64,000 bases of DNA, taken from contig NC_021313.1 of NCBI RefSeq assembly GCF_000403645.1, positions 620,001 through 684,000 of the forward strand, written 5' to 3'. Both the position numbers and the translations under genes were made by a program. Origin of the DNA: Salinarchaeum sp. Harcht-Bsk1. Its GTDB lineage: Archaea > Halobacteriota > Halobacteria > Halobacteriales > Salinarchaeaceae. Under the pieces are notes generated by a model. That model had not been told where the DNA came from, did not search any database, and worked only from the letters and a program-made list of their open reading frames with translations. How positions within the stretch are numbered: position 1 is the stretch's first letter; the number at the start of each line of letters is the position of its first letter. This document shows positions 1 to 13,121 of the stretch, one piece after another.

Positions 1-1630
1 GGCGACGTTCTTCGGCGTTCGACGCAAGGTCAGACGTGTCGGTGAGCCGCTCGACCGACTCGGCGACGTCGCCGAGTGCAGCGGTCTGTTCCTCCGCAGA
101 TGCAGCGAGTGATTCGGTCTCGCTGGCGACGCGGTCGGCCGCGTCGGCGAGGCCGTCCATCTCCGCCGCGATCGCCTCGGCGCTTCGGGCCTGTTGCTCG
201 GTCGCCTGCTCGATTTCCGCCATGCCGTCGGCGGTCTCGTCGGCCGCACCGTGGACGGTGTCGAGCCGCTCGCCGAGGGATTCGACCTGCTCGGAACTGT
301 CCTCGAGCTGGGCGGCGGCGGCGTCGATCGCGTCCGAGACCTCCCGGGCGATCCCTCGGAGCTCCTCGACCGTCTCCGGAAGCGCCTGGAGTTGCTCGCT
401 GGTTTCCTCGGCGAACGACCGCACCTCCTCGCCGAGGACGTCGAGCGCCTCGCTCGAGGCGTCGCTTCGGCTCGCCTCGACCCGGGCGTTCGCGGCGAGG
501 ATCTTCGTCTGGTTCGTGACCTCCTCGATCGTCTCGACGACGTCGTCGATGCGATCGGCCTGCTGTTCGAGGCGCTCGGTCGCCGCCACGGCGGCCTGCG
601 TCTCTTCCCGGAGGTCGTCCATCGCGGCGACGGTCTCCTCGGCCTCAGCAACGCCCTCGCTGGCGACCTCCTCGGTGCGCTCGCCGAGCGTCCGAACGTT
701 CCCCGCGGTGCCGGCGATCTCCTCGACGGTCGCGCTCAGGTCCTCGGCCTCCTCGGCGGCGGTCCGCACGCCCTGTGACTGGTCGGTCGTCAGTTCGTGG
801 ATCGTCTCCGCGCCCTCCGCCACGGTTCCTGCCGCGTCGTGGAGGTCGCCGATCGGTTCCTGGACGTCGGTCTCGACCTCGCTGGCGAGCCGCTGTCGTC
901 GCTGGATCTCCGCTTCGAGCCGGTTGCTGTAGGAGTCGACGTAGGTGTCACAGGCCACCTGCACGTCGAGGTTGATGATCCGGAGCAGCGCCAGCAGGTC
1001 CGCGACGCCGTCGTGGATCGCGTCTCTGACCGTCGACTCGAAGTCCTCGTCCAGGTCGCCCGGATCGTCCGCGTCGTCGCCGAGCGCCCCCAGAACGCTC
1101 CCGAAGAGCCCGTCCGAGCGCTCTGCCTCGGCCCGCTCGACCGCCCAGTCTTCGATGGCCGCGACCACCTGATTCTGGATCCGATCGTCGAGTCGCTCGA
1201 ACAGCAGGTCGTAGTAGACGCCGTACTGTCCGATGTAGTGTTTGAGCGGCATGTCCAGCAGCTCGTGGAGCTTCCCGATCCGCGCCCGATTCCGGAAGTA
1301 GGCCTCGTCGTACTCGCCGGTCGCGAGCGTCACCATGTAGGCCTGCTGGGTCTGCTTGAGTTGCTCGACGGATTTCTCGGAGCGGCCGATCACGTCGGTC
1401 GTCTGCTCGTACTGCGTGAGATTCTCGTAGAACCGCTCCGCGATCTCCTCGCGATGCTCGCGGAGCAAGGGTTCCATCGACGCGAGGCGGCGCTCGTCCT
1501 CGGCATCGAAGCCGATGAACTCCTTTCGCCACGCGATCTCGTCGCGATCCAGCCCGATGTCGTCGGTCAACTGGTCGGCGTCGACGTTCGCGTTCAATCC
1601 CCCGCGGCCGAAGACCTCCTCCGGGTTCAT
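1..1630 (-). CDS. hemAT: HemAT-type globin-coupled methyl-accepting transducer (3' end outside window)
   Basis: Soluble aerotaxis transducer: a heme globin sensor domain joined to a methyl-accepting signalling domain that would talk to CheA/CheW. The frame is open from the ATG at 1630 to the left edge, so 543 codons are visible and the C-terminus is missing. Residues about 30-180 form the globin. The likely proximal heme ligand is His122 in the motif GKLHELL, followed by HYIGQY, as in HemAT; Tyr68 in RFYENL sits where the distal Tyr of Bacillus HemAT lies. From about residue 230 the protein is a long heptad-rich coiled coil with the conserved signalling tip (EEVTNQTKILAANARVEAS). No membrane segment is present, as expected for HemAT. 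GGAGGT abuts the ATG with no spacing. Assignment is by motif recognition; the oxygen-sensing role is known for the family. Confidence 0.9.
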   Translation of the reverse strand, partial: MNPEEVFGRGGLNANVDADQLTDDIGLDRDEIAWRKEFIGFDAEDERRLASMEPLLREHREEIAERFYENLTQYEQTTDVIGRSEKSVEQLKQTQQAYMVTLATGEYDEAYFRNRARIGKLHELLDMPLKHYIGQYGVYYDLLFERLDDRIQNQVVAAIEDWAVERAEAERSDGLFGSVLGALGDDADDPGDLDEDFESTVRDAIHDGVADLLALLRIINLDVQVACDTYVDSYSNRLEAEIQRRQRLASEVETDVQEPIGDLHDAAGTVAEGAETIHELTTDQSQGVRTAAEEAEDLSATVEEIAGTAGNVRTLGERTEEVASEGVAEAEETVAAMDDLREETQAAVAATERLEQQADRIDDVVETIEEVTNQTKILAANARVEASRSDASSEALDVLGEEVRSFAEETSEQLQALPETVEELRGIAREVSDAIDAAAAQLEDSSEQVESLGERLDTVHGAADETADGMAEIEQATEQQARSAEAIAAEMDGLADAADRVASETESLAASAEEQTAALGDVAESVERLTDTSDLASNAEERR

Positions 1631-1700
1631 ACCTCCCGGTCGGACGTCCTGTTTCAAAACCAGTCAGCCGGGTTCCTCCAGCGCGAGAACGGGGCAGTCG

Positions 1701-1708
1701 TTTAAAAC
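1701..1708 (-). promoter_or_regulatory. Candidate TATA element for hemAT
   Basis: TTTTAAA in the hemAT direction, about 70 nt before the ATG, the only AT-rich stretch in the otherwise GC-rich spacer. It would give a transcript with a leader of roughly 45 nt. Confidence 0.4.
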
Positions 1709-1734
1709 GGGTCCCGAAGATGTGCGGACGTGTG

Positions 1735-1751
1735 CCCGGTGGCCGACCGGG
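1735..1751 (-). terminator. Possible hairpin after the PiT permease gene
   Basis: A perfect 6-bp stem CCCGGT/ACCGGG around a 5-nt loop lies 12 nt past the permease stop codon. No T-run follows directly, so termination is only a guess. Confidence 0.25.
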
Positions 1752-1763
1752 AGCGATCGGCAG

Positions 1764-2945
1764 TTAGACCAGCGAGAGCACCACGATCGCGACGTACCCG
1801 ACGACGAACGCCAGCACGAACGAGCCAGCCCACGCGGCGAGCGTCATCCCGATCTTCCGCGGATCGACCGCGGCGCCGCCGCCGACCGCGGCGCCGCTCC
1901 CGATGATCGCGCTGACGACGATCTCGTTGAACGAGACCGGCACGCCGAGCACGACGGCGAGTTGGGCGATCAGGAATGAGGGGACCAGCGCGGCGATCGA
2001 TCGTCTGGGACCGAGCGAGGAGTAGTCCTGCGCGAGCGACTTGATCATCCGCGGCGCACCGGTCCAGGAGCCCACGAGCATCCCGAGGCCGCCGCCGAAC
2101 AGGACGACGATCGGCGATATCGCGCCGACCTCGTCGAGCAACGGGAGCAAGGGTCCGACCGCGAGGCCGACCTGGCTACCACCCGCGGAAAACGCGACGA
2201 GCGAGCCCAGCGAGAGCAGCACTCGTCGGAGCCCGCCGGCCTCATCGCGGGCGACGTCCCAGCGAACGAGTGCTGCGACGGCCAGCGCGGCCGCTAGCGT
2301 CGCGGCCAGCAACGGGGCGGCCCCGTCGACCCCGACGGTGCGCTGGATCGCACCGACGATCGAGCCGGCGGACGTGCCCGGACCGACGAACGCGAACTGC
2401 AGGTTGACCACGACCGCGGCGACGAGACCGGCGAGGAACGGAATGCTCAGTCGCTCGGGGACGTCCGATCGTGGCAGCACACTCGCGATGGTGAACGCGA
2501 TGCCACCGCCCACGAACGGCGTGAGCAACCAGACCGCTCCGATCTGCCGGTAGGTCGCCCATTCGGGCGTACCGCCGAGTGCGAGGCCGACGCCCACGAC
2601 GGCGCCGGTGACCGTGAACGCCGTCGCGATCGGATAGCCGGTCTTGATCCCGACAGCCATCAGGCCTGCACCGATGCCCAGCGCGACGATCACGCCCGTC
2701 GCGGGCAGCGAAACGCCGCCGACCAGCCCGCTCCCGAGCGTCTCGGAGACGTTCGCGCCCTGCGTGATCGCGCCAACGAAGCCGAAGATGCCGACGACGA
2801 ACGCGGCACGCATCGTGGAGATGGCGTTGGCGCCGACGGCTGGCGCGAACGGCGTGGCGCCGCTGGATCCCGCGCCGATGACCCACGCCATGAACGTGCT
2901 GGCGAGGGCCGCGATCAGGAACAGGGCGACGATCGTGGGATCCAT
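1764..2945 (-). CDS. PiT-family permease, possibly for a sulfur oxyanion
   Basis: A 393-residue protein with about ten hydrophobic helices and the inverted-repeat layout of the PiT family (phosphate permeases, and CysP-type sulfate permeases). The first signature region reads GAGSSGATPFAPAVGANAIS and the second lies around GSWTGAPRMIKSLAQDYSS. The GANDVAN Asp of typical phosphate transporters is not evident in either. The gene sits directly before two YeeE/YedE sulfur-transport genes and a persulfide dioxygenase, all on the same strand. Family membership is clear. A sulfate or thiosulfate substrate is my inference from context and the altered signature; phosphate remains possible. Confidence 0.8.
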   Translation of the reverse strand: MDPTIVALFLIAALASTFMAWVIGAGSSGATPFAPAVGANAISTMRAAFVVGIFGFVGAITQGANVSETLGSGLVGGVSLPATGVIVALGIGAGLMAVGIKTGYPIATAFTVTGAVVGVGLALGGTPEWATYRQIGAVWLLTPFVGGGIAFTIASVLPRSDVPERLSIPFLAGLVAAVVVNLQFAFVGPGTSAGSIVGAIQRTVGVDGAAPLLAATLAAALAVAALVRWDVARDEAGGLRRVLLSLGSLVAFSAGGSQVGLAVGPLLPLLDEVGAISPIVVLFGGGLGMLVGSWTGAPRMIKSLAQDYSSLGPRRSIAALVPSFLIAQLAVVLGVPVSFNEIVVSAIIGSGAAVGGGAAVDPRKIGMTLAAWAGSFVLAFVVGYVAIVVLSLV

Positions 2946-3010
2946 CTATGACTGGTGGAAGTGCGGTGACCTGCTGGAGAAACTGGGAAACAGCGTTGGT
3001 GGGGTAATCG

Positions 3011-3481
3011 TCAGTCGGCGCTGGCCGGTGTGGCCTCGTCGCTGGGCGATCGGCTGCGGAACACGCCCTGGGCGTAGGCGCCGATGAACATCCCGGCGAT
3101 CGCCCAGAGGATCGTGAAGTTACCGATGCCGACGCTGGCGTAGGCGGCGCCCGGGCAGATGCCGGAGAGCCCCCAGCCGACGCCGAAGATGGCGCCGCCG
3201 ACGAGCACGTTCCGGTCGAAGGGCTTGAGCCGGCGCTCGAAGTCGTCGCCGGACAGGACCGCCTGGCCGAGCAGTCGCGGCGCCAGGAAGTACGTGACGC
3301 CGGTGACGGCCGCGCCACCGAACATCACGAACACCAGCCCGAAGTCCTCGAACTGGAGGAAGTCGAGCACGACCTCCGGTCGCGCCATGTGGCTGTAGGC
3401 GAGCCCGAAGCCGAAGATCAGGCCGCCGAGGATCACCAGCGGCGCGAACAGCGGGTGCCGCTGCGAGGCGCTCCCCGCCAT
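3011..3481 (-). CDS. YeeE/YedE-type membrane protein, second half (DUF6691-like)
   Basis: A 156-residue membrane protein with about four helices, the second member of a split YeeE/YedE pair. One-piece bacterial YeeE (TsuA) imports thiosulfate using conserved cysteines in short re-entrant loops. The matching motif here is GLSGICPGAAYAS with Cys109. The ATG at 3481 overlaps the stop codon of the upstream half by one base (TGATG), so the two are probably translationally coupled and form one transporter. A longer reading reaching to 3688 was rejected because it runs through the upstream gene. Confidence 0.85.
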   Translation of the reverse strand: MAGSASQRHPLFAPLVILGGLIFGFGLAYSHMARPEVVLDFLQFEDFGLVFVMFGGAAVTGVTYFLAPRLLGQAVLSGDDFERRLKPFDRNVLVGGAIFGVGWGLSGICPGAAYASVGIGNFTILWAIAGMFIGAYAQGVFRSRSPSDEATPASAD

Positions 3482-4026
3482 CACGGCGTCACCCCCGCTG
3501 CTGCGACTAGCTGTGCGGTCACGATCGCGACCAAGAGGAAGGTCACGACCCCGGCGATCGACGTCTTCGACGCGGAGCCGACCCCGCAGACGCCGTGCCC
3601 GGAGGTACAGCCCTTGCCGACGCGGGTGCCCACGCCGACGAAGATGCCGCCGACCAGGAGCCGCCACGGGTGGACGTCGGTCGTCCACGCGCCGCCCTGG
3701 ATCGTCACGGCGTATACGGCCGCGCCCAGGACGATGCTGCCCGTGAACAGGAGCCGCCAGTCACGCGAGGCGACGTACCGCTGGAAGCGGGACTGCCCCG
3801 AGACGTAGGACAGCGTCGACTCGAGGAACGTGCTCGCGCCGGCGCTGATGCCGGTCCCGAGGTAGATCACCGCGGTCCCGAGGCCGACCAGCAGCCCGCC
3901 GACGGCGTACCGACTGATCCCGTTGGGGAACGGGTCGGACGCGATCGAGGCGGGCGCGATGTCGACCGCACTGGTGGCGGCGACCAGGTCGGCCGCGAGC
4001 GCTACGGTGATGAGGTCGGACAGCAT
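3481..4026 (-). CDS. YeeE/YedE-type membrane protein, first half
   Basis: A 181-residue protein with about five hydrophobic helices. It carries the loop motif GKGCTSGHGVCG with Cys140 and Cys147, the signature of YeeE/YedE (thiosulfate or sulfane-sulfur transport) proteins. It starts 11 nt after the stop codon of the persulfide dioxygenase gene and overlaps the second half by one base. Sulfur import or export across the membrane is the family role; direction and exact substrate cannot be read from the sequence. Confidence 0.87.
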   Translation of the reverse strand: MLSDLITVALAADLVAATSAVDIAPASIASDPFPNGISRYAVGGLLVGLGTAVIYLGTGISAGASTFLESTLSYVSGQSRFQRYVASRDWRLLFTGSIVLGAAVYAVTIQGGAWTTDVHPWRLLVGGIFVGVGTRVGKGCTSGHGVCGVGSASKTSIAGVVTFLLVAIVTAQLVAAAGVTP

Positions 4027-4037
4027 TGGCTACGCGC

Positions 4038-5231
4038 TTAGTCCCCCGCGAGCGACTCCTGGCTCGCCGCGCAGTTGTTCGGGCCGAGTTCGAGGGTGAA
4101 CGCTTCCTCGTCGTCGACCGCGTTCTGGCCGAGGTTCGTCGCGATGATGTCCTCGTAGTTCGCCGGGCGGGGCGGCATGTCCGAGAGGATCAGCTCGACG
4201 AAGTCCGCTTCCTCCATCGAGAGCGCGTCCATGCGCTCCTTCAGGTCGCCGATCGGCGCCGTGTAGGTGTCGTCGTCGGCCGGAACTGCCGCGTCGCTGA
4301 AGTGCGCGCCGCCGACGAGCGTCTCGTCGGGCAGCGTGAGGACGCGCTCCTGGAGCGACTCGTAGAGCATCCGGGCCGCGTCGGGTGCGCCGTCGTCGCC
4401 CTCTTCGAGGTCGGGGCGCGCGACGCTCTCGATGAACAGGCCGTCGCCGGTAGCAAGCAGACTGTCGTCGACGAGGTACGAGGTCATCCCGGTCGTGTGG
4501 CCGGGAGTGTAGACCGTCTCGATCGTGGCGTCGCCGACGGTGAACTCGTCGCCGTCGTCGGCGAGCGTCAGATCGTCGGCGTAGGTGACCCCGCGGTCGA
4601 CCGCTGCGGCGGGAATGACGCCCTCGACGCCCGCTGCGTCGAGGTCGCGAACGCCGGAAATGTGGTCGGCGTGGATGTGGGTGTCGATCGCATACTGGAG
4701 CTCAGCACTGTAGTTCTCGGCGTCGTCGAGGTACCGATCGGTGAACGCCCGCAGGGGGTCGATCACCGCGGCCTCGTCGCCCTCGACGAGGAGATAACCG
4801 AGACAGCCCGAGGAGGGCCGCTGGTACTGGTAGAGCGTGCCGGCGCCGTCGTAGTCGCTGACCTCGACGGACTCGTAGATGCGCGCCCAGCCGTTCATCC
4901 CGTCCTCCAGGTGAACGACGTCGTAGCCTTCCTCGATGAGTCGGCCCGCGACGTACTCGCTGGCGCCGCCCTTCGCACACAGGGCGACGATCTCCTCGTC
5001 CTCGGGGAGCTGCTCGAAGACGTCCTCGTCGATCTCGTCCTCGAGGAACTCGAAGTACGGAACGTTGATCGATTCGACGTTCTCGCCGTCGATGCGCCAC
5101 TCCTCGTAGTCGGAGGTCATCCGAGCGTCGAGGATGGTGAGGTCCTCACCGGCGTCGACGCGTTCCTTGAGCTGTGCTGGTTCGACCGATTCCACCGCCA
5201 CGTCGGGCGTGGGGAAGTCGTCAGCGTTCAT
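4038..5231 (-). CDS. Rhodanese-metallo-beta-lactamase fusion, persulfide dioxygenase type
   Basis: A 397-residue two-domain protein. Residues about 12-120 are a rhodanese domain with active-site Cys85 in the loop CAKGGAS. Residues about 130-395 are a metallo-beta-lactamase domain with THIHADH (His185, His187, Asp189, His190), then His245, Asp263 and His310. The single-iron persulfide dioxygenases (ETHE1, CstB group) use the His/His/Asp set matching His185, His245 and Asp263 to turn low-molecular-weight persulfide into sulfite, and rhodanese then moves sulfur between thiols and sulfite. The rhodanese-first order is unlike ETHE1-rhodanese fusions with the rhodanese at the C-terminus. The ATG at 5231 was chosen over one 16 codons upstream because it lies about 31-38 nt from a TATA-like element. 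First gene of a four-gene sulfur operon. Confidence 0.88.
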   Translation of the reverse strand: MNADDFPTPDVAVESVEPAQLKERVDAGEDLTILDARMTSDYEEWRIDGENVESINVPYFEFLEDEIDEDVFEQLPEDEEIVALCAKGGASEYVAGRLIEEGYDVVHLEDGMNGWARIYESVEVSDYDGAGTLYQYQRPSSGCLGYLLVEGDEAAVIDPLRAFTDRYLDDAENYSAELQYAIDTHIHADHISGVRDLDAAGVEGVIPAAAVDRGVTYADDLTLADDGDEFTVGDATIETVYTPGHTTGMTSYLVDDSLLATGDGLFIESVARPDLEEGDDGAPDAARMLYESLQERVLTLPDETLVGGAHFSDAAVPADDDTYTAPIGDLKERMDALSMEEADFVELILSDMPPRPANYEDIIATNLGQNAVDDEEAFTLELGPNNCAASQESLAGD

Positions 5232-5262
5232 GTGTCGTGTACCCCCAGTTTCCAGAGCCGGG

Positions 5263-5269
5263 CACATAA
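5263..5269 (-). promoter_or_regulatory. Candidate TATA element for the persulfide dioxygenase operon
   Basis: TTATGTG in the operon direction, 32-38 nt before the ATG at 5231, the usual distance for a short-leader or leaderless haloarchaeal promoter. Confidence 0.45.
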
Positions 5270-5293
5270 GGGTTTGCATAGTAGTTCGTCAAT

Positions 5294-5303
5294 CGCACAA
5301 TAC
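5294..5303 (-). promoter_or_regulatory. Inverted-repeat operator candidate, left half-site
   Basis: Reads GTATTGTGCG in the direction of the persulfide dioxygenase gene. An exact copy lies in the opposite orientation at 5448-5457 in front of tusA, so each divergent gene has the word in the same orientation relative to itself. Confidence 0.4.
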
Positions 5304-5447
5304 AGTGTTCGGAACCCACCGTGCAGAGGTGCCGCCAACCGCGAGAGTACCGAGCAACACGCCCATACGTATGAATTATAGAAACAAGCGACATCTCAGT
5401 AATTCACCGACCGCACAAGAACCGATATCCTTTAGTGATCGGCCTTG

Positions 5448-5457
5448 GTATTGTGCG
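5448..5457 (+). promoter_or_regulatory. Inverted-repeat operator candidate, right half-site
   Basis: GTATTGTGCG, 36-45 nt before the tusA ATG, matching the site at 5294-5303 perfectly over 10 bp. The shorter core GTATTGT is also at 15228-15234, 34-40 nt before the second tusA gene, but in the opposite orientation relative to that gene. Confidence 0.4.
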
Positions 5458-5492
5458 TTAACTCCAATACAAACCAACGGAGTGATACACCG

Positions 5493-5738
5493 ATGACAGA
5501 CGCAATCGACGTTACGGAGACGCTCGACGTGAAGGGAGCATCGTGTCCAATGCCGGTCGTCAAGACGAAGTCCGCGATCGACGACCTCGCCGAAGGTGAG
5601 GTCCTCGAGGTACTCGCGACGGACTCCGGCAGCATGAGCGACATCGACGGGTGGGCGAGCGGGACGGACGGCGTCTCGCTCCTCGACCAGATCGAGGACG
5701 GCGACCTCTACAAACACTACGTGGAGAAGACCGCATAG
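5493..5738 (+). CDS. tusA: TusA-family sulfur carrier
   Basis: An 81-residue single-domain protein with the TusA signature KGASCPMPVV. Cys18 of the CPxP motif carries sulfane sulfur as a protein persulfide. In the cell it would take sulfur from a rhodanese or DsrE-like donor and pass it on for oxidation, thiolation or cofactor synthesis. The ATG at 5493 is preceded by GGAGTGAT at a normal ribosome-binding distance. The stop codon is directly followed by the ATG of the DsrE-like gene with no spacer. It diverges from the persulfide dioxygenase operon across a 261-bp shared control region. Confidence 0.92.
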   Translation: MTDAIDVTETLDVKGASCPMPVVKTKSAIDDLAEGEVLEVLATDSGSMSDIDGWASGTDGVSLLDQIEDGDLYKHYVEKTA

Positions 5739-6347
5739 ATGAGCACCGACGCAGCCGAAACGGAGGAGGCGCCCGACGAGGAGGCCGCAGCGACTGCGGA
5801 CGTCCCAGAGACCGAGGCGGAGCTACAGGCCCGCATCGAGGAACTGGAGGATACGGTCGCGACGCTCGAGAGCGAGGTCGACGACGGTCCGAAGAAGATG
5901 ACGATCATCGCGACGAAGGGCACGCTCGACATGGCCTACCCGCCGCTGATCCTCGCGAGCACCGCGGCCGCCTTCGGCTGGGACGTCGTGGTCTTCCACA
6001 CGTTCTGGGGCCTGGACATCCTCCACGAGGAGAAGTCCTCGAACCTCCAGCTGTCCTCCGTCGGCAACCCGAATATGCCCGTTCCGAACGCGCTCGCCGC
6101 GCTCCCGGGCATGGACAAGGTCACGACGAAGATGATGGAGAAGAAGATCGACGACAACAACACCGCGACGATCGAGGAACTCATCGAAGTCTCCCTCGAG
6201 CAGGGCGTCGAGATGCAGGCCTGCCAGATGACCATCGAGCTGATGGACTACGACGAGGACGCGTTCTACGACGACGTCACCGTCGGCGTCGGCGCGGCGA
6301 CCGCACTCGAGCACATGGCCGAGTCGGACGTGCAGCTCCTCGTCTGA
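5739..6347 (+). CDS. DsrE/DsrF-like (DsrE2-type) sulfurtransferase
   Basis: A 202-residue protein. Residues about 22-48 form a short acidic coiled coil. The rest is a DsrE-like alpha/beta domain beginning KKMTIIATKGTLDMAYPPLI and containing the conserved Cys162 in MQACQMT, the position used for persulfide carriage in DsrE2 proteins. It begins immediately after tusA (TAGATG) and must be co-transcribed with it. TusA-DsrE2 pairs move sulfane sulfur in archaeal and bacterial sulfur oxidation; that role is inferred from family and context. Confidence 0.88.
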   Translation: MSTDAAETEEAPDEEAAATADVPETEAELQARIEELEDTVATLESEVDDGPKKMTIIATKGTLDMAYPPLILASTAAAFGWDVVVFHTFWGLDILHEEKSSNLQLSSVGNPNMPVPNALAALPGMDKVTTKMMEKKIDDNNTATIEELIEVSLEQGVEMQACQMTIELMDYDEDAFYDDVTVGVGAATALEHMAESDVQLLV

Positions 6348-6658
6348 ATCGCGCTGTAAATCCGGCCTGACCAGCCCCACCGTTCACTTCTCAGGAACAG
6401 TTGACCGCTGAGCCGTGGCGCGTATTCTGCTCAAAAACAGCGGCGTGCGATCGCTGTAGCCCATTGATGGACAGCCATTCATCACCCTCTATAACTTAGA
6501 AAATAAGAAAGATGTGGTGCCAATAATCGATGATTGATTTAGCATATCGGACGCCATTATTCCATACTATTCTGATTGGGTCATCTGCCAGTTGAATCTG
6601 CAAGGCATGAATGGAGGGACAGGAATAAAGCCCGTGCCGGAGAAACTGCCTATACTCA
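6348..6658. other. Gene-free left flank of the AT-rich accessory island
   Basis: About 310 bp without a credible gene. Base composition changes within it: GC-rich to about 6450, then clearly AT-rich from about 6480 up to the ATPase start. A 10-bp word CTGTAAATCC at 6354-6363 recurs in the same orientation at 8723-8732, just beyond the ATPase-TOPRIM pair. Nothing else is recognised. Confidence 0.5.
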
Positions 6659-8005
6659 ATGGTCCGGCTCACAAATATTGATGTCAAGGGGTTCAAAGGG
6701 ATTCAGTCAACCTCGATAGAGCCGGGTCAACTAAATATTATTACGGGCCGGAATAACGCAGGGAAAACATCGCTTCTTGAAGCTATCGCAGTGCTTTCTG
6801 ATCCTACTACGCTTGAAGACTTCGGAGACCGAGCTACATCAGTCATCAACAAACAAAGAGAGGAGACATCTCTACATGGCAAATATTGGCGGGAACAACT
6901 ATCACTTAAACAATATGATGCAGAAGGAAACCCAAGCGATCCGCTTACCAAGTCAGTCAAGATTCGACAGGCTACCGATAAAGAAGTATATGAAATTGCA
7001 ATACAGAAATTCAATCAAAATATTCCAAAAGAAACGGCCCAAGTAAGCCTATTCCCATTACACCGCGGAGATTTGCATCTACGCCAAGATAAACGTAGTA
7101 ATAACCAATCAGATGAGGCAGCTCTCGCAAAGATTCTGAACGAGACACTTTCAGATTCACTACTATCGATACCTGAGGAAGATATTATTGAGGTTCTATC
7201 GGATGACGTTCTGGCTGTCAAGGTTCAAGACCAACAGCTGTATCTTTTTTCTTCTACTGAAGGTTATCGGGAAATCATTCTCCAGATTGTTGATAGTGCC
7301 ACAGAGACGCTAGTTGACGATAATCGAATTATCAGTGAAGCATCTAAGAGGGAGTCCAAATCGCAAGCCATTCACCGTCTAATCAGGTCTGTACTTTCTC
7401 CAAAACGTCGAAAAAGAGCACAGCTTTTTGGCGGATCTCCAACCACGGTGAGTGGTATTCATTATCTCGATGAAATTCCCACAAAGGCAGGGGAAATCGA
7501 TTTCGAAGACAATCCAATCAGAGTAAATAAGGTCGAAAATTACCTGCAAAAACACGATATTGCAGGCCCATTAGAAGATTTCTCCTTCACAGACCTTGTG
7601 TTTCAAAAGGATGAGGAGCCACCATATGATGTCCCCTTTGAATTCATGGGAGATGGGTTCAAAACTATAGTTGGCATACTTTGGGAGCTGTTTGATGAGT
7701 CCAACGACGGTGATGTTCTCTTAATCGAAGAGCCGGAGCAGCATATGCATCCCGGATACATAGAACAATTAACACGTGTTCTAATACAAATATCGAAAGA
7801 AGAGAAATTGCAATTATTCATCACAACACATAATACAGACTTCCTGGAATCATTTATTTCCAAAGAAGTTGAGAATCAGCACGGAGAGTATCTGCAAAAG
7901 GAGTTCCAACTATTCCAACTAACAGAACCCATCAACCGGTCATTATCCTACGAGGATGCAAAAGAGGATATGAATAACCTCAACTTGGACTTGAGAGGTC
8001 CATAA
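6659..8005 (+). CDS. OLD/AAA-type ABC ATPase of a two-gene, probably defensive, system
   Basis: A 448-residue protein of the AAA15/AAA21 OLD-like ATPase group. Walker A is GRNNAGKTS at residues 30-38. The signature-like stretch FMGDGFKTIVGIL is near 329-341. Walker B is DVLLIEEPEQHMHP at 352-365, and the H-loop is TTHNTDF with His391. The nucleotide-binding fold is interrupted by a large middle region (about 95-300) with no recognised domain. Unlike full OLD nucleases it has no C-terminal TOPRIM domain; a TOPRIM-like protein is encoded by the next gene, overlapping by one base (TAATG). Codon and base use is AT-rich, unlike the genome around it, which suggests transfer. Such ATPases drive anti-phage systems (OLD, Gabija, PARIS); which of these, if any, is open. 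Confidence 0.85.
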   Translation: MVRLTNIDVKGFKGIQSTSIEPGQLNIITGRNNAGKTSLLEAIAVLSDPTTLEDFGDRATSVINKQREETSLHGKYWREQLSLKQYDAEGNPSDPLTKSVKIRQATDKEVYEIAIQKFNQNIPKETAQVSLFPLHRGDLHLRQDKRSNNQSDEAALAKILNETLSDSLLSIPEEDIIEVLSDDVLAVKVQDQQLYLFSSTEGYREIILQIVDSATETLVDDNRIISEASKRESKSQAIHRLIRSVLSPKRRKRAQLFGGSPTTVSGIHYLDEIPTKAGEIDFEDNPIRVNKVENYLQKHDIAGPLEDFSFTDLVFQKDEEPPYDVPFEFMGDGFKTIVGILWELFDESNDGDVLLIEEPEQHMHPGYIEQLTRVLIQISKEEKLQLFITTHNTDFLESFISKEVENQHGEYLQKEFQLFQLTEPINRSLSYEDAKEDMNNLNLDLRGP

Positions 8006-8598
8006 TGCAGGGGGACACCATTGTCCTCACTGAAGGAATCAATGACTTGGCCTTTCTTGAGCAGCTTCACTCTCGATCTGGTGTGGGAGAATATTGTGAC
8101 CGGTTCAATAATCAAGAAAGTGATGAAACACAAACACAGCGAATACGTCAGCATCGAATAGGGACTTCGATTACATATTTATACAAGTGTGAGGGAGGAC
8201 GGTCAGAAGTTGAGAAAATTTATGCTCGTGAAGGACCCTCAATTGGCGAAAAAGGCTTACGAACGGTACTAATGTTCGACATGGACGATGATAGTAGTTT
8301 TAGCGATGTATTAGATAGCCTGAACAGTTCTTTGTGGAAAGAATGGAGGAACCGAATTTCGTTATCCGCAAATAGACATATAGACATTACCTCTGATTTT
8401 ATAATTAAAGAATGTACTTTGGGGGGCAATGGGGAAATTTTTGATGAGCCCATTGTCATCACATTTTTCAACGATATGGAAACGGCTACGGGCATGTCTT
8501 ATGGAGCGCCGTTCAGTAAGAAAAAACAGGAAGCCGAACAATATTTCAGAGATCGACCAAATGAAACTGAGTCGCTTATTGACGCATTGTATTCGTAG
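8005..8598 (+). CDS. TOPRIM-like partner protein of the OLD-type ATPase
   Basis: A 197-residue protein, translationally coupled to the ATPase gene. The pattern fits a TOPRIM fold: Glu10 in IVLTEGINDLAFLEQL, then a strand ending in FDMDDD with Asp92 and Asp94 as the DxD pair. The rest (about 95-197) has no motif I know. It could be the nuclease or effector of the pair, as TOPRIM domains are in OLD nucleases and in AriB of PARIS, or a DUF3226/DUF4435-like relative. AT-rich composition matches the ATPase gene and not the surroundings. The TOPRIM call rests on two short motifs and needs a profile search. Confidence 0.65.
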   Translation: MQGDTIVLTEGINDLAFLEQLHSRSGVGEYCDRFNNQESDETQTQRIRQHRIGTSITYLYKCEGGRSEVEKIYAREGPSIGEKGLRTVLMFDMDDDSSFSDVLDSLNSSLWKEWRNRISLSANRHIDITSDFIIKECTLGGNGEIFDEPIVITFFNDMETATGMSYGAPFSKKKQEAEQYFRDRPNETESLIDALYS

Positions 8599-8763
8599 AA
8601 ATGTCTAGTAATACAGCCATTAACTCCCAGCCCAGTAGTCAATGATTGAGAACCCGAGTAATTCGGTTGGTGTTGATGGGATGCGCACTCCATTCAGCAG
8701 GGGCGAATAGAGTAGTCAAAAACTGTAAATCCAACAGAACGATTCGGACGGAACTAGACTGTC

Positions 8764-9060
8764 TCAGATCTCGCCTTCCAGCCCCTCCAGCAACCGATCC
8801 ACCTCCTCCGCCGTATTAACAGCGTGAACCGACGCCCGGATCGCATCCGGGAAGGGCAGCGGCCGGACGACGATCCCGTCCTCTCGCAGCCGCTCGACCG
8901 TCGCCTCGGGATCGGGCACGTCGATCGTCACGAGCCCGGACTCCGGTTCGCTGGGACTCAGCAGCCGCTCCTCCGGCACCCCACCCGCGAGCCGGCCTGC
9001 CAGATCGAGCGTGCGCTCCTCCATCCGATCGACGCCGACCTCGAAGCGCTTTGCGCCGGG
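8764..9060 (-). pseudogene. Displaced 3' fragment of the class V aminotransferase gene
   Basis: This stretch is collinear with 11970-12329, the last 360 bp of the intact aminotransferase gene, in the same orientation and with its own stop codon. The 83-residue tail shared with the intact protein differs at only a few places, while many codons differ silently. The only length difference is a 63-bp (21-codon) gap, located exactly between two copies of GCCGACCTCG that are both present in the intact gene (12240-12249 and 12303-12312). Beyond 9060 similarity stops abruptly. It lacks the PLP lysine region and a natural start, so it is a relic. Confidence 0.9.
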
Positions 9061-9275
9061 ATGCAGGTCGACGCGCTACGAACTGACGACGAGTTCGTCC
9101 GCGATGGTATGATCCGGATGGGCGGGCAAGCGTCTAAATTGTTGCCCGGGGACTGGCGAGCACCAGTCCTACCGTGTCCGGCTGTGCGATGACGGCCAGA
9201 AGGAGGCAACGGCCTGGGGTGATCCAGTGGTCGTCCAGCGTGATCCAACGAGGTCGACCGACCCGGTAGGCCCAG
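9061..9275. other. Gene-free segment at the fragment junction
   Basis: About 215 bp between the aminotransferase fragment and the next gene. Open frames exist on both strands but none resembles a known family. It may hold further relics; nothing can be supported. Confidence 0.3.
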
Positions 9276-9641
9276 CTATGCGCCGCAACCACCCGTCCAG
9301 AGATAATACGTGTCATTACGGTAGGAAACCGTATAGAACTGCACCTCGTCGCTGTATTCGAACTCTGGCGGGTCGTCACTTGCATCGTAGAATTGATAGT
9401 CTCCGTCCTCTCGCGCACGATCGAAGATTGACTGGGCGTCGGAACTCATGTTCGCGTAGTCGTAGTGAGTGGAGTGGCCGCTTGAGAAGGAGATACCTTC
9501 GACCTCGTCCGGATCCTCGTAGACATGTGTTGTGCGCCGGCAGTCCGCGTCGTCGTCGAATATAGGTGCGATAAACATCATGACCAGTCCCAGACATAAG
9601 AGAACAGCGACAAGCCCTCCGAATAGTGCCTTCGAATTCAT
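9276..9641 (-). CDS. Small membrane-anchored extracellular protein, unknown function
   Basis: A 121-residue protein. Residues about 7-27 form one hydrophobic helix, followed by DDDADC and an acidic, Tyr-rich domain ending TYYLWTGGCGA. The single N-terminal helix suggests an anchored protein with its domain outside the cell. The body looks like the short beta-rich haloarchaeal domains annotated as DUF7979 or similar, but I hold that loosely. It starts 15 nt after the stop of the zincin-like gene, so it is the third gene of an island operon. Its GC content is lower than that of the genome core. Confidence 0.6.
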   Translation of the reverse strand: MNSKALFGGLVAVLLCLGLVMMFIAPIFDDDADCRRTTHVYEDPDEVEGISFSSGHSTHYDYANMSSDAQSIFDRAREDGDYQFYDASDDPPEFEYSDEVQFYTVSYRNDTYYLWTGGCGA

Positions 9642-9656
9642 CGGTTGGTGGTACTC

Positions 9657-10370
9657 CTAATGTTGCCCCGCATCATGGGCTGCAGAGGCTTCCAGCGCCT
9701 CGACTGTGCATGACGAGCACTCAGTAATTTTATCGGTGGTCCAAGCCCAGTCACTGCAATTTCCGGCTGTAGCCTCGCATTGACCGTACCACCCCAGCAT
9801 CGGTGTCGCTTCGTCACCCCAATAACTCGTATGAGCCGTTCCAAGATTGTGATCCTCCGAACTTGAACAACCAGTGTCACCATCTAATATCTGGTTGATC
9901 ACAACGGAACACTCGTCAGTGTGTAGGTAATTATGGAGTCCTTCATGTATGGCTTGTACACCTAAGCCGTGTGGTTGGCGAGCGTGCTCAGCAACGAAAG
10001 CTACAGTTGGTTCTTTCCATGAAGATCCACCCCAGGCGAACATGTCTGAATCGCCATATGTACAGACGTCATTTAGAAATACGTAGCTTCCTGGCGCATT
10101 CAAATTTTCATCGTCCAGCCAATTTAACGCATCTTCTCCCATTAATTCCCGTGTCGCACAGCCAGGGTCGTAAGTAGTATCATACTTTCTAGCAATATAT
10201 CCATCGATTGATGAATTATTATATATGCGCTCCAACTCAATACTCACATAATCAAACATTATGTCCCAGGCGCCGGAACCCGTGTTAGGCGTACGCATGA
10301 TATTGATGACAAGTAATTCGCCGCTGGACATATCGCCCCCAAGCCGGACATCTTCGAGAGTAGCCCCCAT
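9657..10370 (-). CDS. Zincin-like metalloprotease candidate
   Basis: A 237-residue protein. The motif AIHEGLHNYLHTDEC gives His142, Glu143, His146 and His150, the HExxHxxxH pattern of zinc metallopeptidases of the gluzincin/metzincin type. It has many cysteines (about 11), typical of an exported, disulfide-stabilised protein. It has no signal peptide of its own: the frame begins MGATLEDVRL one base after the stop of a gene that does carry a Tat signal. Either the two are co-exported or they are halves of one broken gene. No close family recognised. Confidence 0.65.
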   Translation of the reverse strand: MGATLEDVRLGGDMSSGELLVINIMRTPNTGSGAWDIMFDYVSIELERIYNNSSIDGYIARKYDTTYDPGCATRELMGEDALNWLDDENLNAPGSYVFLNDVCTYGDSDMFAWGGSSWKEPTVAFVAEHARQPHGLGVQAIHEGLHNYLHTDECSVVINQILDGDTGCSSSEDHNLGTAHTSYWGDEATPMLGWYGQCEATAGNCSDWAWTTDKITECSSCTVEALEASAAHDAGQH

Positions 10371-10371
10371 A

Positions 10372-11133
10372 TCAGATCACCTCACTTGGGTTCTCGACGA
10401 TTTGATACGGTAGCTCACCGCGATTCTGAACAGCTATTATAGGTGTAGCTATCACTTCCTCAGATTCATACCCAACTCTCATCGCTTCCTGACCCTCTCG
10501 AGGGCCATTCGTTTCTCGGCCCAATGGAACGACCTTTCTCCGCTTCACCGTCACTGACCGAGGTTCCAGTTCCACACTCATTTCGGATTCGGGTGACAGA
10601 CGACGAACGTTTCCGGAAGTGATGATTTTGATGTCGCGACCAGCTGTAACAACTCGGGCCGTCGGTTGCGAGTGATCGCCCTGGACAGTGACGCCTTTGG
10701 AGGGCCTGAGATCACTCCCAAGATTAGTCGGCAGATATGGCTTGTTCGCAAGTCTCAGCTCTCGAACAGGTAGCGAGTGGAACCGGTCAGTAGCAACCAC
10801 ATTCTCTCGCTCACGAACTCTCGATCGTTCTGCCTCACTGAGGTTATTTTGAAACAGGAAGACTTCATCACGTCGTTGCATCCAGCTTCTGGCTGAACAG
10901 TCAGTCACAGTTTCGATTTCGACATCGTCCTCAATCCGATACACGAGTCCAACGGTTGAGAATCGGACTGTATCGTCAGGGGACGATCCAGCTACCTGTT
11001 GGCCCAGCGTACTCAGACCTGCGCCGACGCCGGCTGATTTCAACAGATGACGTCGATTGAGTCCATCAACGACATCTGACCTGTCTACGTTCCCTTTCCC
11101 TTTCCTTTCGGATGATGATTCCTTAGTTGCGTC
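10372..11133 (-). CDS. Tat-signal protein without a standard start codon, unknown function
   Basis: The frame is open from a stop at 11134-11136 down to 10372. It encodes a clear haloarchaeal twin-arginine signal, LNRRHLLKSAGVGAGLSTLG, followed by a beta-rich domain of about 200 residues with no recognised family. No ATG or GTG exists in frame between the upstream stop and the RR motif; the first usual alternative, TTG at 11043, falls inside the signal and would remove the arginines. The gene may use a rare start or may be damaged at its 5' end. It sits one base before the zincin-like gene, so the two are coupled. The spacer upstream (to about 11300) is strongly AT-rich and probably carries the promoter. 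Confidence 0.55.
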   Translation of the reverse strand, partial: DATKESSSERKGKGNVDRSDVVDGLNRRHLLKSAGVGAGLSTLGQQVAGSSPDDTVRFSTVGLVYRIEDDVEIETVTDCSARSWMQRRDEVFLFQNNLSEAERSRVRERENVVATDRFHSLPVRELRLANKPYLPTNLGSDLRPSKGVTVQGDHSQPTARVVTAGRDIKIITSGNVRRLSPESEMSVELEPRSVTVKRRKVVPLGRETNGPREGQEAMRVGYESEEVIATPIIAVQNRGELPYQIVENPSEVI

Positions 11134-11304
11134 TTAAGGCATACGAACACAGTAGAAAGTAATGGTAATAATTGTTGGCTAGTGTCAATGGTAATACACC
11201 AATATTATATTATCAATATACATCACTCGGGCACGTATAGATGTCAAAACCGGACTGCTTAACGACTCAGGAATATGTATCGCCTTCCCAGTAGCTGTCG
11301 CTAA

Positions 11305-11944
11305 ATATCAAAATTACTAGAAAGTGAAGCGGGCGGGTACGGTTGGTACAGACGAAACTAGCCCGCTTAACCAGTCGGTCCATTTCGCTCGCTCAATAAG
11401 ACGTCGACGGAAACTCGAGACCTGCGTTTCGGCGCGACGAACGCGGCTATGCCCACTGAGTCTATATCTCGATTGACGGCCTCAAAACGTATCTCGATCT
11501 TCTGTACCGGCGGCTACTGGACGGGCAGTACGAGATGCCGAGAGTCAGTCGAATTCTAGACATAGAACGGATCAATCATCCCGAATTAACCACCGTCTGA
11601 TGGCGGATACAGGGACTGAAAAATGTCGATCTGGCGGCAGCTGTCGCAGCTCTCTGCAGACCTCCACGAGACTGGCGAGGTCCAGGCCATCGAGGCAACC
11701 GGGTGAGATAGGCGTGGAGCGAGTCGTCGCTACGCCAGACGGACGAATACTACAATTCACTGCGAGAAGCGGGCGTAAGAGTAGGGATCAAACGGGGTTT
11801 CTACGCGAGACGCCGCTCATAACGCCAGACTCGACGACCCAATCAAATTCTTCATCGCTCACAACGGACTCCTTCGAGTGGTGACTATGCGCCTTCTCTG
11901 CAGCACGACTTCTTAGAACCGCCAGCAACCAATAATTTCGATAT
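11305..11944 (+). mobile_element. Decayed IS5-type (ISH) insertion sequence
   Basis: The segment is bounded by imperfect inverted ends: ATATCAAAATTACT at 11305-11318 and, reversed, ATATCGAAATTATT at 11931-11944 (12 of 14 positions equal). The inside contains the broken transposase frames listed separately. The word GTCGCT flanks both ends (11297-11302 and 11946-11951) but may be chance. The element is about 640 bp, shorter than an intact IS5-family ISH element, so part of it is deleted. Confidence 0.65.
11352..11916 (+). pseudogene. IS5-family transposase relic
   Basis: Translation in changing frames gives consecutive pieces typical of haloarchaeal IS5-family transposases: TKLARLTSRSISLAQ, then GLKTYLDLLYRRLLDGQYEM, then MSIWRQLSQLSADLHETG and DRRGASRRYARRTN, then LREAGVRVGIKRGFYAR and AAHNARLDDP. 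Stops at about 11397 and 11457 and several frameshifts interrupt it. The catalytic core between the RRTN block and LREAGV is missing. No function is expected. Confidence 0.75.
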
Positions 11945-11969
11945 AGTCGCTCAAAACGACGCGTAAAAC

Positions 11970-13121
11970 TCAGAACTCGTCTTCGAGCCCAGCCAACAAC
12001 CGATCCACCTCTTCCGCCGTGTTCACCGCGTGCACAGACGCCCGAATCGCATCCGGGAACGGCAGCGGCCGAACGACGATCCCGTCCTCGCGCAGCCGCT
12101 CGACCGTCGCTTCGGGATCGGGCACGTCGATCGTGACGAGCCCGGACTCCGGCTCTGCGGGGCTCAGCAGCCGCTCCTCCGGCACCCCACCCGCGAGCCG
12201 GCCTGCCAGGTCGAGCGTGCGCTCCTCCATCCGATCGACGCCGACCTCGTCAATCGCCTCGATCGCCTCGGCGAGCGCGACGTGGGACGCCGGGTTCGCG
12301 GAGCCGACCTCGAAGCGCTTCGCGCCGGGTTCGAATTCGAACACGTCGGCCGTCGGTTTCTCGACGCTCCGATACCCGACGGTGCGCGGTTCGAGTTCCT
12401 CTGCAGCCTCGCGATCCACGTGGAGGAAGCCGCCGCCCCAGAGCCCGAGGAGCCACTTGTGGCCCGCGGCTGCGACGGCGTCGGCGCCCCACTCGGAGAC
12501 GTCCAGTTCTGCCTGGCCGGGGATCTGCACCGCGTCGACCAGCGTGAACGCGCCGGCGTCGTTGGCGATGTCGACGAGGTCGGCGACCGGCAGGCGGGTC
12601 CCGTGGGTCCAGGTGAGCGCGCTGAAGCAGGCGAGGTCGGCGCCGTCGACGGCCTCGGCGAACTCCTCTGGATCGACGCGGCCGTCGGTGGTCTCGACGA
12701 CCCGTACCTCCACGCCCTCGCGTTCGAGGCGCTGCCAGGCGAGGATGCCGGCGGGATGTTCGAGGTCGGTGCGGACGACCACGTCCCATGGCTCCCAGTC
12801 GATCGCCCCGGCGATCGCGTTGATACCGGCGGTGGTGCTCTCCGTGAGCGCGATCTCCTCGGCCTCGGCACCGACGAAGTCCGCGACCGCCTCGCGGACC
12901 ATCTCGAACGTGTCGAAGGCCGTTTCGTACGGGTCGTCGAGGATCGGCGACTCGTACTCGTGACTCTCGAGGAACGCCTCGGCGGCCTCGACGACGAACC
13001 GCGGACTGGGGCCGTGCGCGCCGAAGTTGAAGTACGCGCCCTCCTGCAGGGCGGGCACGTCGGCGCGAAGTTCCAGCGGCGTCATCGCGTCGTCGGCGTG
13101 TCTGGTGTCCGAAGGCGTCAT
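11970..13121 (-). CDS. Class V aminotransferase-fold PLP enzyme
   Basis: A 383-residue fold-type I PLP enzyme of the aminotransferase class V group (cysteine desulfurase and isopenicillin N epimerase relatives). Asp196 in LVDAVQIPG and the PLP-binding Lys222 in AAGHKWLLG are present. The catalytic Cys loop of true NifS/SufS desulfurases is not evident near the C-terminus, which reads RASVHAVNTAEEVDRLL. So it may be an epimerase, a lyase or a desulfurase-like enzyme with another chemistry. The ATG overlaps the stop of the DUF1641 gene (ATGA), placing it last in the tusA-SQR operon. Its 3' end is duplicated at 8764-9060. Confidence 0.85.
   Translation of the reverse strand: MTPSDTRHADDAMTPLELRADVPALQEGAYFNFGAHGPSPRFVVEAAEAFLESHEYESPILDDPYETAFDTFEMVREAVADFVGAEAEEIALTESTTAGINAIAGAIDWEPWDVVVRTDLEHPAGILAWQRLEREGVEVRVVETTDGRVDPEEFAEAVDGADLACFSALTWTHGTRLPVADLVDIANDAGAFTLVDAVQIPGQAELDVSEWGADAVAAAGHKWLLGLWGGGFLHVDREAAEELEPRTVGYRSVEKPTADVFEFEPGAKRFEVGSANPASHVALAEAIEAIDEVGVDRMEERTLDLAGRLAGGVPEERLLSPAEPESGLVTIDVPDPEATVERLREDGIVVRPLPFPDAIRASVHAVNTAEEVDRLLAGLEDEF

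What the first reader, a model, noticed from the sequence alone, without database searches (positions are those of the whole stretch)
9276..11133. Three-gene island operon for export: Tat protein, zincin-like protease, membrane-anchored protein
Three tightly spaced genes (1-nt and 15-nt gaps) encode a twin-arginine protein of unknown fold, a Cys-rich protein with HEGLHNYLH, and an anchored small domain. None matches a family I know well. The island location and composition suggest a secreted effector, halocin-like toxin, or surface-processing system acquired by transfer.
Basis: partly seen in the sequence, partly recalled or inferred. Interest (0 to 1): 0.6.

Follow-up and report, generated by a model that had tools for sequence, protein, structure and literature searches.

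The report
Tat-escorted metalloprotease-like gene pair
In many salt-loving archaea a metalloprotease-like protein without an export signal sits next to a partner gene that carries a Tat export signal, whereas the relatives without that partner mostly carry the Tat signal themselves, which suggests that the partner ferries the enzyme out of the cell.

Summary
The three minus-strand genes exist as described (9276-11142), but gene 1 has no usable start codon before its twin-arginine motif: the promoter-proximal ATG (11142) runs into TAA at codon 3. No curated family matches any of the three. Gene 2 belongs to an unnamed haloarchaeal family (92 of 392 class genomes). Its model (pLDDT 87, pTM 0.88) matches metzincins (ADAM, snake-venom proteases) in the PDB. 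Its conserved site is (H/Q)ExxH ... (D/E)HxLG ... Gene-1 homologues lie beside such proteins, and elsewhere beside canonical HExxHxxGxxH proteins, one above Pfam's Reprolysin_5 cut-off. Among 99 loci, 55 gene-2 homologues carry their own Tat signal, 35 have gene 1 next door, none has both, and 5 of the other 9 lie beside another Tat protein. The best reading is Tat hitchhiking: gene 1 escorts a signal-less metzincin-like protein. Gene 3 (membrane-anchored) is an optional third member. This copy lies in a variable island and may be inactive. Physical interaction, export, catalysis and biological purpose are untested.

The parts
10372..11142 (-). gene 1: Tat-signal protein with an all-beta mature domain (proposed Tat escort); ATG 11140-11142, in-frame TAA 11134-11136, open frame 11133-10375, stop TGA 10372-10374
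11050..11055 (-). twin-arginine codons (CGA CGT) of gene 1; the only invariant columns of the 30-member gene-1 alignment
11165..11170 (-). TATA-like TTATTA, 23-28 nt upstream of the ATG at 11142 (promoter inferred from spacing)
   Evidence: inference
9657..10370 (-). gene 2: metzincin-like protein of 237 aa without a signal peptide
9933..9947 (-). HExxH motif of gene 2 (residues 142-146, HEGLH)
   Evidence: H146 99/99, E143 98/99, H142 79 His and 19 Gln of 99
9840..9854 (-). DHxLG motif of gene 2 (residues 173-177), likely third metal ligand H174
   Evidence: H174 in 95/99
9798..9806 (-). TPM of gene 2 (residues 189-191), candidate Met-turn
9276..9641 (-). gene 3: 121-aa protein with N-terminal membrane anchor; optional third member
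6458..11952 (.). variable low-GC island; the same-genus genome G001 has an unrelated 2.6-kb insert here
8763..9043 (.). 281-nt duplicate (91%) of the 3' end of the flanking aminotransferase-like gene (11969-12249), left edge of the three-gene segment

Best explanation
Gene 2 is a metzincin-like (reprolysin-like) metal-binding protein that acts outside the cell but has no signal peptide of its own. Gene 1 is its dedicated partner: its Tat signal directs a folded gene1-gene2 complex through the Tat translocase (hitchhiker export). Gene 3, or a lipoprotein in its place in other genomes, may hold the exported protein at the membrane or protect the producer. Shown by computation: gene families, gene adjacency, Tat signals, predicted fold of gene 2, conservation of motifs. 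Inferred: complex formation, co-export, peptidase activity, role of gene 3. In this particular genome gene 1 probably cannot be made with its signal, so the module may be inactive here.
For: Gene 2 fold: AF2 pLDDT 87.2, pTM 0.88; the 15 PDB hits at E <= 1e-3 and most of the 50 listed are adamalysin/ADAM-type metzincins, the rest TACE and fragilysin, best E 1.3e-4, prob 1.00, TM 0.50-0.56. Metal-site residues E143, H146, H174 almost invariant. Gene-1 homologues found by profile also sit beside canonical HExxHxx(G/D)xxH plus S(I/L)M proteins (L256, L259, L260, L261); one of these passes the Pfam Reprolysin_5 cut-off (27.4 against 27 bits), and their profile aligns to the window family with HExxH on HExxH (hhalign E 1.6e-6, prob 90). 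Export link: 99 loci, own Tat 55, gene 1 adjacent 35, both 0, neither 9; 5 of the 9 have another Tat protein next door on the same strand (background 3%). Own-Tat cases outside the large Natrialbaceae-type group: L042, L142, L156, L158, L159. RR is the only invariant feature of gene 1.
Against: No physical interaction, export or activity was tested. 19 of 99 have Gln and one Met in place of the first metal-binding His, and one locus has HNxxH, so some members may lack peptidase activity. The tree needs at least 8 changes of own-Tat but only 2 are forced by well-supported branches, so the number of independent switches is small and the sign test is not significant. Four loci (L151, L167, L203, L204) have neither own Tat nor a Tat neighbour. 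Gene 1's mature domain (about 200 aa, confident all-beta) is large for a mere carrier. The TM-score is moderate and HExxHxxGxxH spacing is not met in the window protein.
Confidence: 0.6

Rival explanations
1. Gene 1 is an inhibitor, pro-segment in trans or folding chaperone of gene 2 rather than its export carrier; gene 2 leaves the cell by another route.
For: Gene 1 has a large, confidently folded mature domain and is an exclusive neighbour of metzincin-like proteins; proteases often come with inhibitors.
Against: Homologues with their own Tat signal never have gene 1 beside them (0 of 55), so gene 1 is dispensable exactly when the signal is in cis; RR is gene 1's only invariant feature; no other signal is seen on gene 2.
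Confidence: 0.2
2. A secreted antagonism system: the metzincin-like protein attacks neighbouring haloarchaea and the membrane-anchored third protein protects the producer.
For: Patchy, mobile, fast-diverging family: 92 of 392 genomes, near-identical plasmid copies in three species, 7 copies in one genome, and varied downstream membrane-anchored proteins or lipoproteins.
Against: No killing or immunity evidence; the third gene is missing in most loci; no halocin, toxin or defence family matches.
Confidence: 0.15
3. Gene 2 works in the cytoplasm and the adjacency to gene 1 reflects another functional link.
For: Gene 2 has no signal peptide.
Against: Most own-signal relatives carry a Tat signal on the same domain (55 loci); Cys 205 and Cys 221 are conserved in the gene-1-linked members (31 and 32 of 35), as expected of an exported disulfide protein.
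Confidence: 0.07
4. In this genome the module is a decaying insertion without function (compatible with the best explanation for the family as a whole).
For: Stop at codon 3 of gene 1 with no alternative start before the Tat signal; segment flanked by a partial gene duplication; broken copies elsewhere (L040, L049, L052, L155, L157).
Against: The rest of gene 1 and all of genes 2 and 3 are open with conserved motifs; a non-canonical start or a sequence error is possible.
Confidence: 0.45

Closest known systems
Metzincin metallopeptidases (reprolysin/adamalysin M12B type)
   Same: Predicted fold, HExxH at the end of the active-site helix, third His, candidate Met-turn; profile link to a Pfam Reprolysin_5 member
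   Different: Third His lies 28 residues after the second, not at HExxHxxGxxH spacing; first His is Gln in a fifth of members; no sequence match of the window protein to any Pfam, NCBIfam or PDB entry
Tat hitchhiker complexes (E. coli HybOC, PaoABC; PMC4273604)
   Same: A signal-less partner encoded beside a Tat-signal partner
   Different: Known cases are cofactor-containing redox enzymes; here the passenger is a metzincin-like protein, and the Tat signal can be in trans (gene 1) or in cis (own signal)
Archaemetzincins (M54; PMC3427221)
   Same: Archaeal metzincin-type proteins
   Different: No HExxHxxGxxHCx4CxM signature in the window protein
Halocin C8 type precursor and immunity proteins
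   Same: Tat export and Cys-rich product (recalled, not tested)
   Different: No family match; architecture is two or three separate genes with a metzincin-like fold

Membership tests
Metzincin | HExxH | tested here: met
   HEGLH in the window; E and second His in 98/99 and 99/99, first His in 79/99
Metzincin | extended HExxHxxGxx(H/D) | tested here: not met
   No Gly or His/Asp at these positions in the window family; third conserved His is residue 174. Met in gene-1-linked L256
Metzincin | Met-turn | tested here: inconclusive
   (S/T)P(M/I/L), Met in 65/99, aligned with SIM of canonical relatives; geometry not measured
Metzincin | catalytic-domain fold | tested here: inconclusive
   Foldseek prob 1.00, E 1.3e-4, but TM about 0.5 and rmsd 6.4 A
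Archaemetzincin (M54) | HExxHxxGxxHCx4CxMx17CxxC | tested here: not met
   Sequence of gene 2 and alignment A3
Tat hitchhiker complex | one partner with Tat signal | tested here: met
   RR invariant in 30 gene-1 homologues; in the window the signal is in frame but lacks a start codon
Tat hitchhiker complex | other partner without signal, encoded alongside | tested here: met
   35 loci with gene 1 adjacent, none with own Tat
Tat hitchhiker complex | stable complex and co-dependent export | not testable with these tools
   needs pull-down and deletion strains
Halocin (C8-like) | precursor releasing a Cys-rich peptide with cognate immunity | tested here: inconclusive
   No Pfam or NCBIfam match; no direct comparison made

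The most novel reading that the evidence does not exclude
Haloarchaea hold a large, unnamed class of metzincin-like proteins whose Tat signal is interchangeable between cis (own signal) and trans (a dedicated escort of new fold), part of a mobile three-part system with a membrane-anchored protein used in competition between cells.
Probability: 0.2. Interest if true: 0.8.

Novelty: new variant of a known kind. Interest (0 to 1): 0.6.

Why it matters
Haloarchaea send an unusual share of their secreted proteins through Tat (39-55% predicted, PMC2945643), yet a protein without a signal is normally counted as cytoplasmic. If right, a family present in about a quarter of sampled haloarchaeal genomes is exported, part of it invisible to secretome predictors, Tat hitchhiking extends beyond redox enzymes, and the matched cis/trans signal states give a clean experimental system.

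Tried and rejected
Pfam, NCBIfam, PADLOC and PHROGs: nothing significant for genes 2 and 3, only the Tat signal for gene 1. PDB sequence search with gene-2 profile: only chance hits. Pattern scans of genome contigs and viral contigs with gene 2: nothing. Phages: none. Gene-1 fold in PDB and viral libraries: no match at E <= 0.001. Rfam: nothing. 'One gene split by a frameshift' rejected: two genes in all relatives. 'HExxHxxxH' rejected: His 150 not conserved. L053, which matches both profiles, rejected as a meaningful fusion: it looks like a deletion joining gene-1 start to gene-2 end. Literature search for Tat hitchhiking in haloarchaea: no paper in the held library.

Full report
Observation. 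The frames lie where stated on the minus strand: gene 1 to 10372, gene 2 10370-9657, gene 3 9641-9276. The frame of gene 1 opens at 11133, directly after an in-frame TAA, and no ATG, GTG or TTG precedes the twin arginine; TTG 11043 would cut the signal off. The ATG at 11142 has a TATA-like TTATTA 23-28 nt upstream and lines up with the start of the nearest homologue (L037), so a nonsense codon at position 3 is the simplest reading; a sequence error or an unusual start cannot be excluded.

Context. The window is 620001-684000 of a single-contig 3.26-Mb genome of the haloarchaeal class (class inferred from its named relatives). The genes are in a low-GC stretch, 6458-11952, which in the same-genus genome G001 is replaced by an unrelated 2.6-kb insert, also of low GC. 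The three-gene segment is bordered by a 281-nt, 91% duplicate of the 3' end of the neighbouring aminotransferase-like gene, as expected if it arrived with or integrated at that gene end. The left part of the island holds an AAA ATPase with best defence-library matches to PDC-M38A, AbiLi and AriA type ATPases.

Gene 2. It has one copy here. Relatives were found in Halorussus, Halosimplex and Halobaculum plasmids and then, with profile A3, in 92 of 392 genomes of the class, 33 of 86 genera. A phylum-wide sample gave matches in 11 of 295 genomes, all of the same order as the window genome. No curated family matches the window protein. AlphaFold2 with 25 sequences gave pLDDT 87.2 and pTM 0.88; the PDB matches at E <= 1e-3 are ADAM33, ADAM8 and snake-venom metalloproteases, followed by TACE and fragilysin. 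Over 99 aligned homologues His146 is invariant, Glu143 98, His174 95, His142 79 with 19 Gln and one Met, and the TPM-like motif has Met in 65. A Gln at the first ligand with everything else kept is unusual; whether such members bind metal or cut protein is unknown. A survey of zincins reports that substituted HExxH sites are common and non-random (PMC3650047).

Gene 1. Thirty homologues share only the twin arginine as invariant columns. The mature part is predicted with high confidence as all-beta (pLDDT above 90 over most of it, pTM 0.74) and has no PDB or BFVD match at E <= 0.001. A separate class-wide scan with the gene-1 profile returned 20 loci scoring above 50 bits in the local re-scan; 19 lie beside a metzincin-like frame and the other, L258, is at a contig end. 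Some of these neighbours are a second subfamily with the canonical HExxHxx(G/D)xxH and S(I/L)M motifs; one reaches Pfam's Reprolysin_5 cut-off. Profile-profile comparison joins this subfamily to the window family at E 1.6e-6, with the HExxH motifs in register.

Signal in cis or in trans. For 99 loci the own-Tat state and the presence of gene 1 within 600 bases were recorded (Tat calls by a simple rule, 10 of them set by hand after inspection; four redundant, fused or truncated loci left out). Own Tat only: 55. Gene 1 only: 35, in 33 of them on the same strand. Both: 0. Neither: 9, of which L041, L044, L047, L140 and L145 have a different Tat-signal protein directly beside them on the same strand, while 3% of other frames in these loci do. 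Most own-Tat loci form one Natrialbaceae-type group (one member is Natronorubrum texcoconense), but L042, L142, L156, L158 and L159 lie elsewhere. At least 8 changes are needed on the best tree, 2 on supported branches only, so phylogenetic independence is limited.

Gene 3. Homologues lie directly downstream of gene 2 in L054 and L052 and overlap its end in L138; the domain also occurs alone. Elsewhere the third place is taken by a Tat lipoprotein (for example L256, where three genes follow each other with gaps of at most 4 bases; also L007, L134, L135, L140). It is missing in most loci.

Interpretation. The complementary distribution is what Tat hitchhiking predicts; the known bacterial cases are described in PMC4273604. 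That own-Tat relatives manage without gene 1 speaks against gene 1 being an obligatory inhibitor or foldase. What the exported protein does is open. Mobility, patchiness and divergence fit an accessory trait, possibly antagonism, but no evidence separates that from nutrition or surface processing.

Noticed in passing
window 6659-8598: AAA ATPase (AAA_15/AAA_21, matches PADLOC PDC-M38A, AbiLi, AriA models) followed with overlap by a 197-aa protein without family match: likely a two-gene defence system in the same island.
   Followed up: partly
window 8763-9043 and 11969-12249: 281-nt direct repeat (91%): duplicate of the 3' end of an aminotransferase-like gene flanking the three-gene segment.
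   Followed up: partly
L222 (G001), between the two flanks: Same-genus genome carries an unrelated low-GC 2.6-kb insert with two genes at the same site: an insertion hotspot.
   Followed up: partly
L004, L005, L006: Near-identical gene-2 copies (99.5-100% protein identity) flanked by transposases on plasmids of two Halorussus species and Halosimplex aquaticum; in L006 the gene-1 copy is gone and a transposase gene lies upstream.
   Followed up: partly
L049-L051, L056, L136-L137, L146, L150, L152, L155 and others: QExxH in place of HExxH in about a fifth of the family while Glu143, His146 and His174 mostly stay: a possible unusual metal site.
   Followed up: partly
L053: Short Tat protein matching the start of gene 1 and the end of gene 2: apparent deletion fusion.
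   Followed up: no
G010: Seven gene-2 homologues in one genome.
   Followed up: partly
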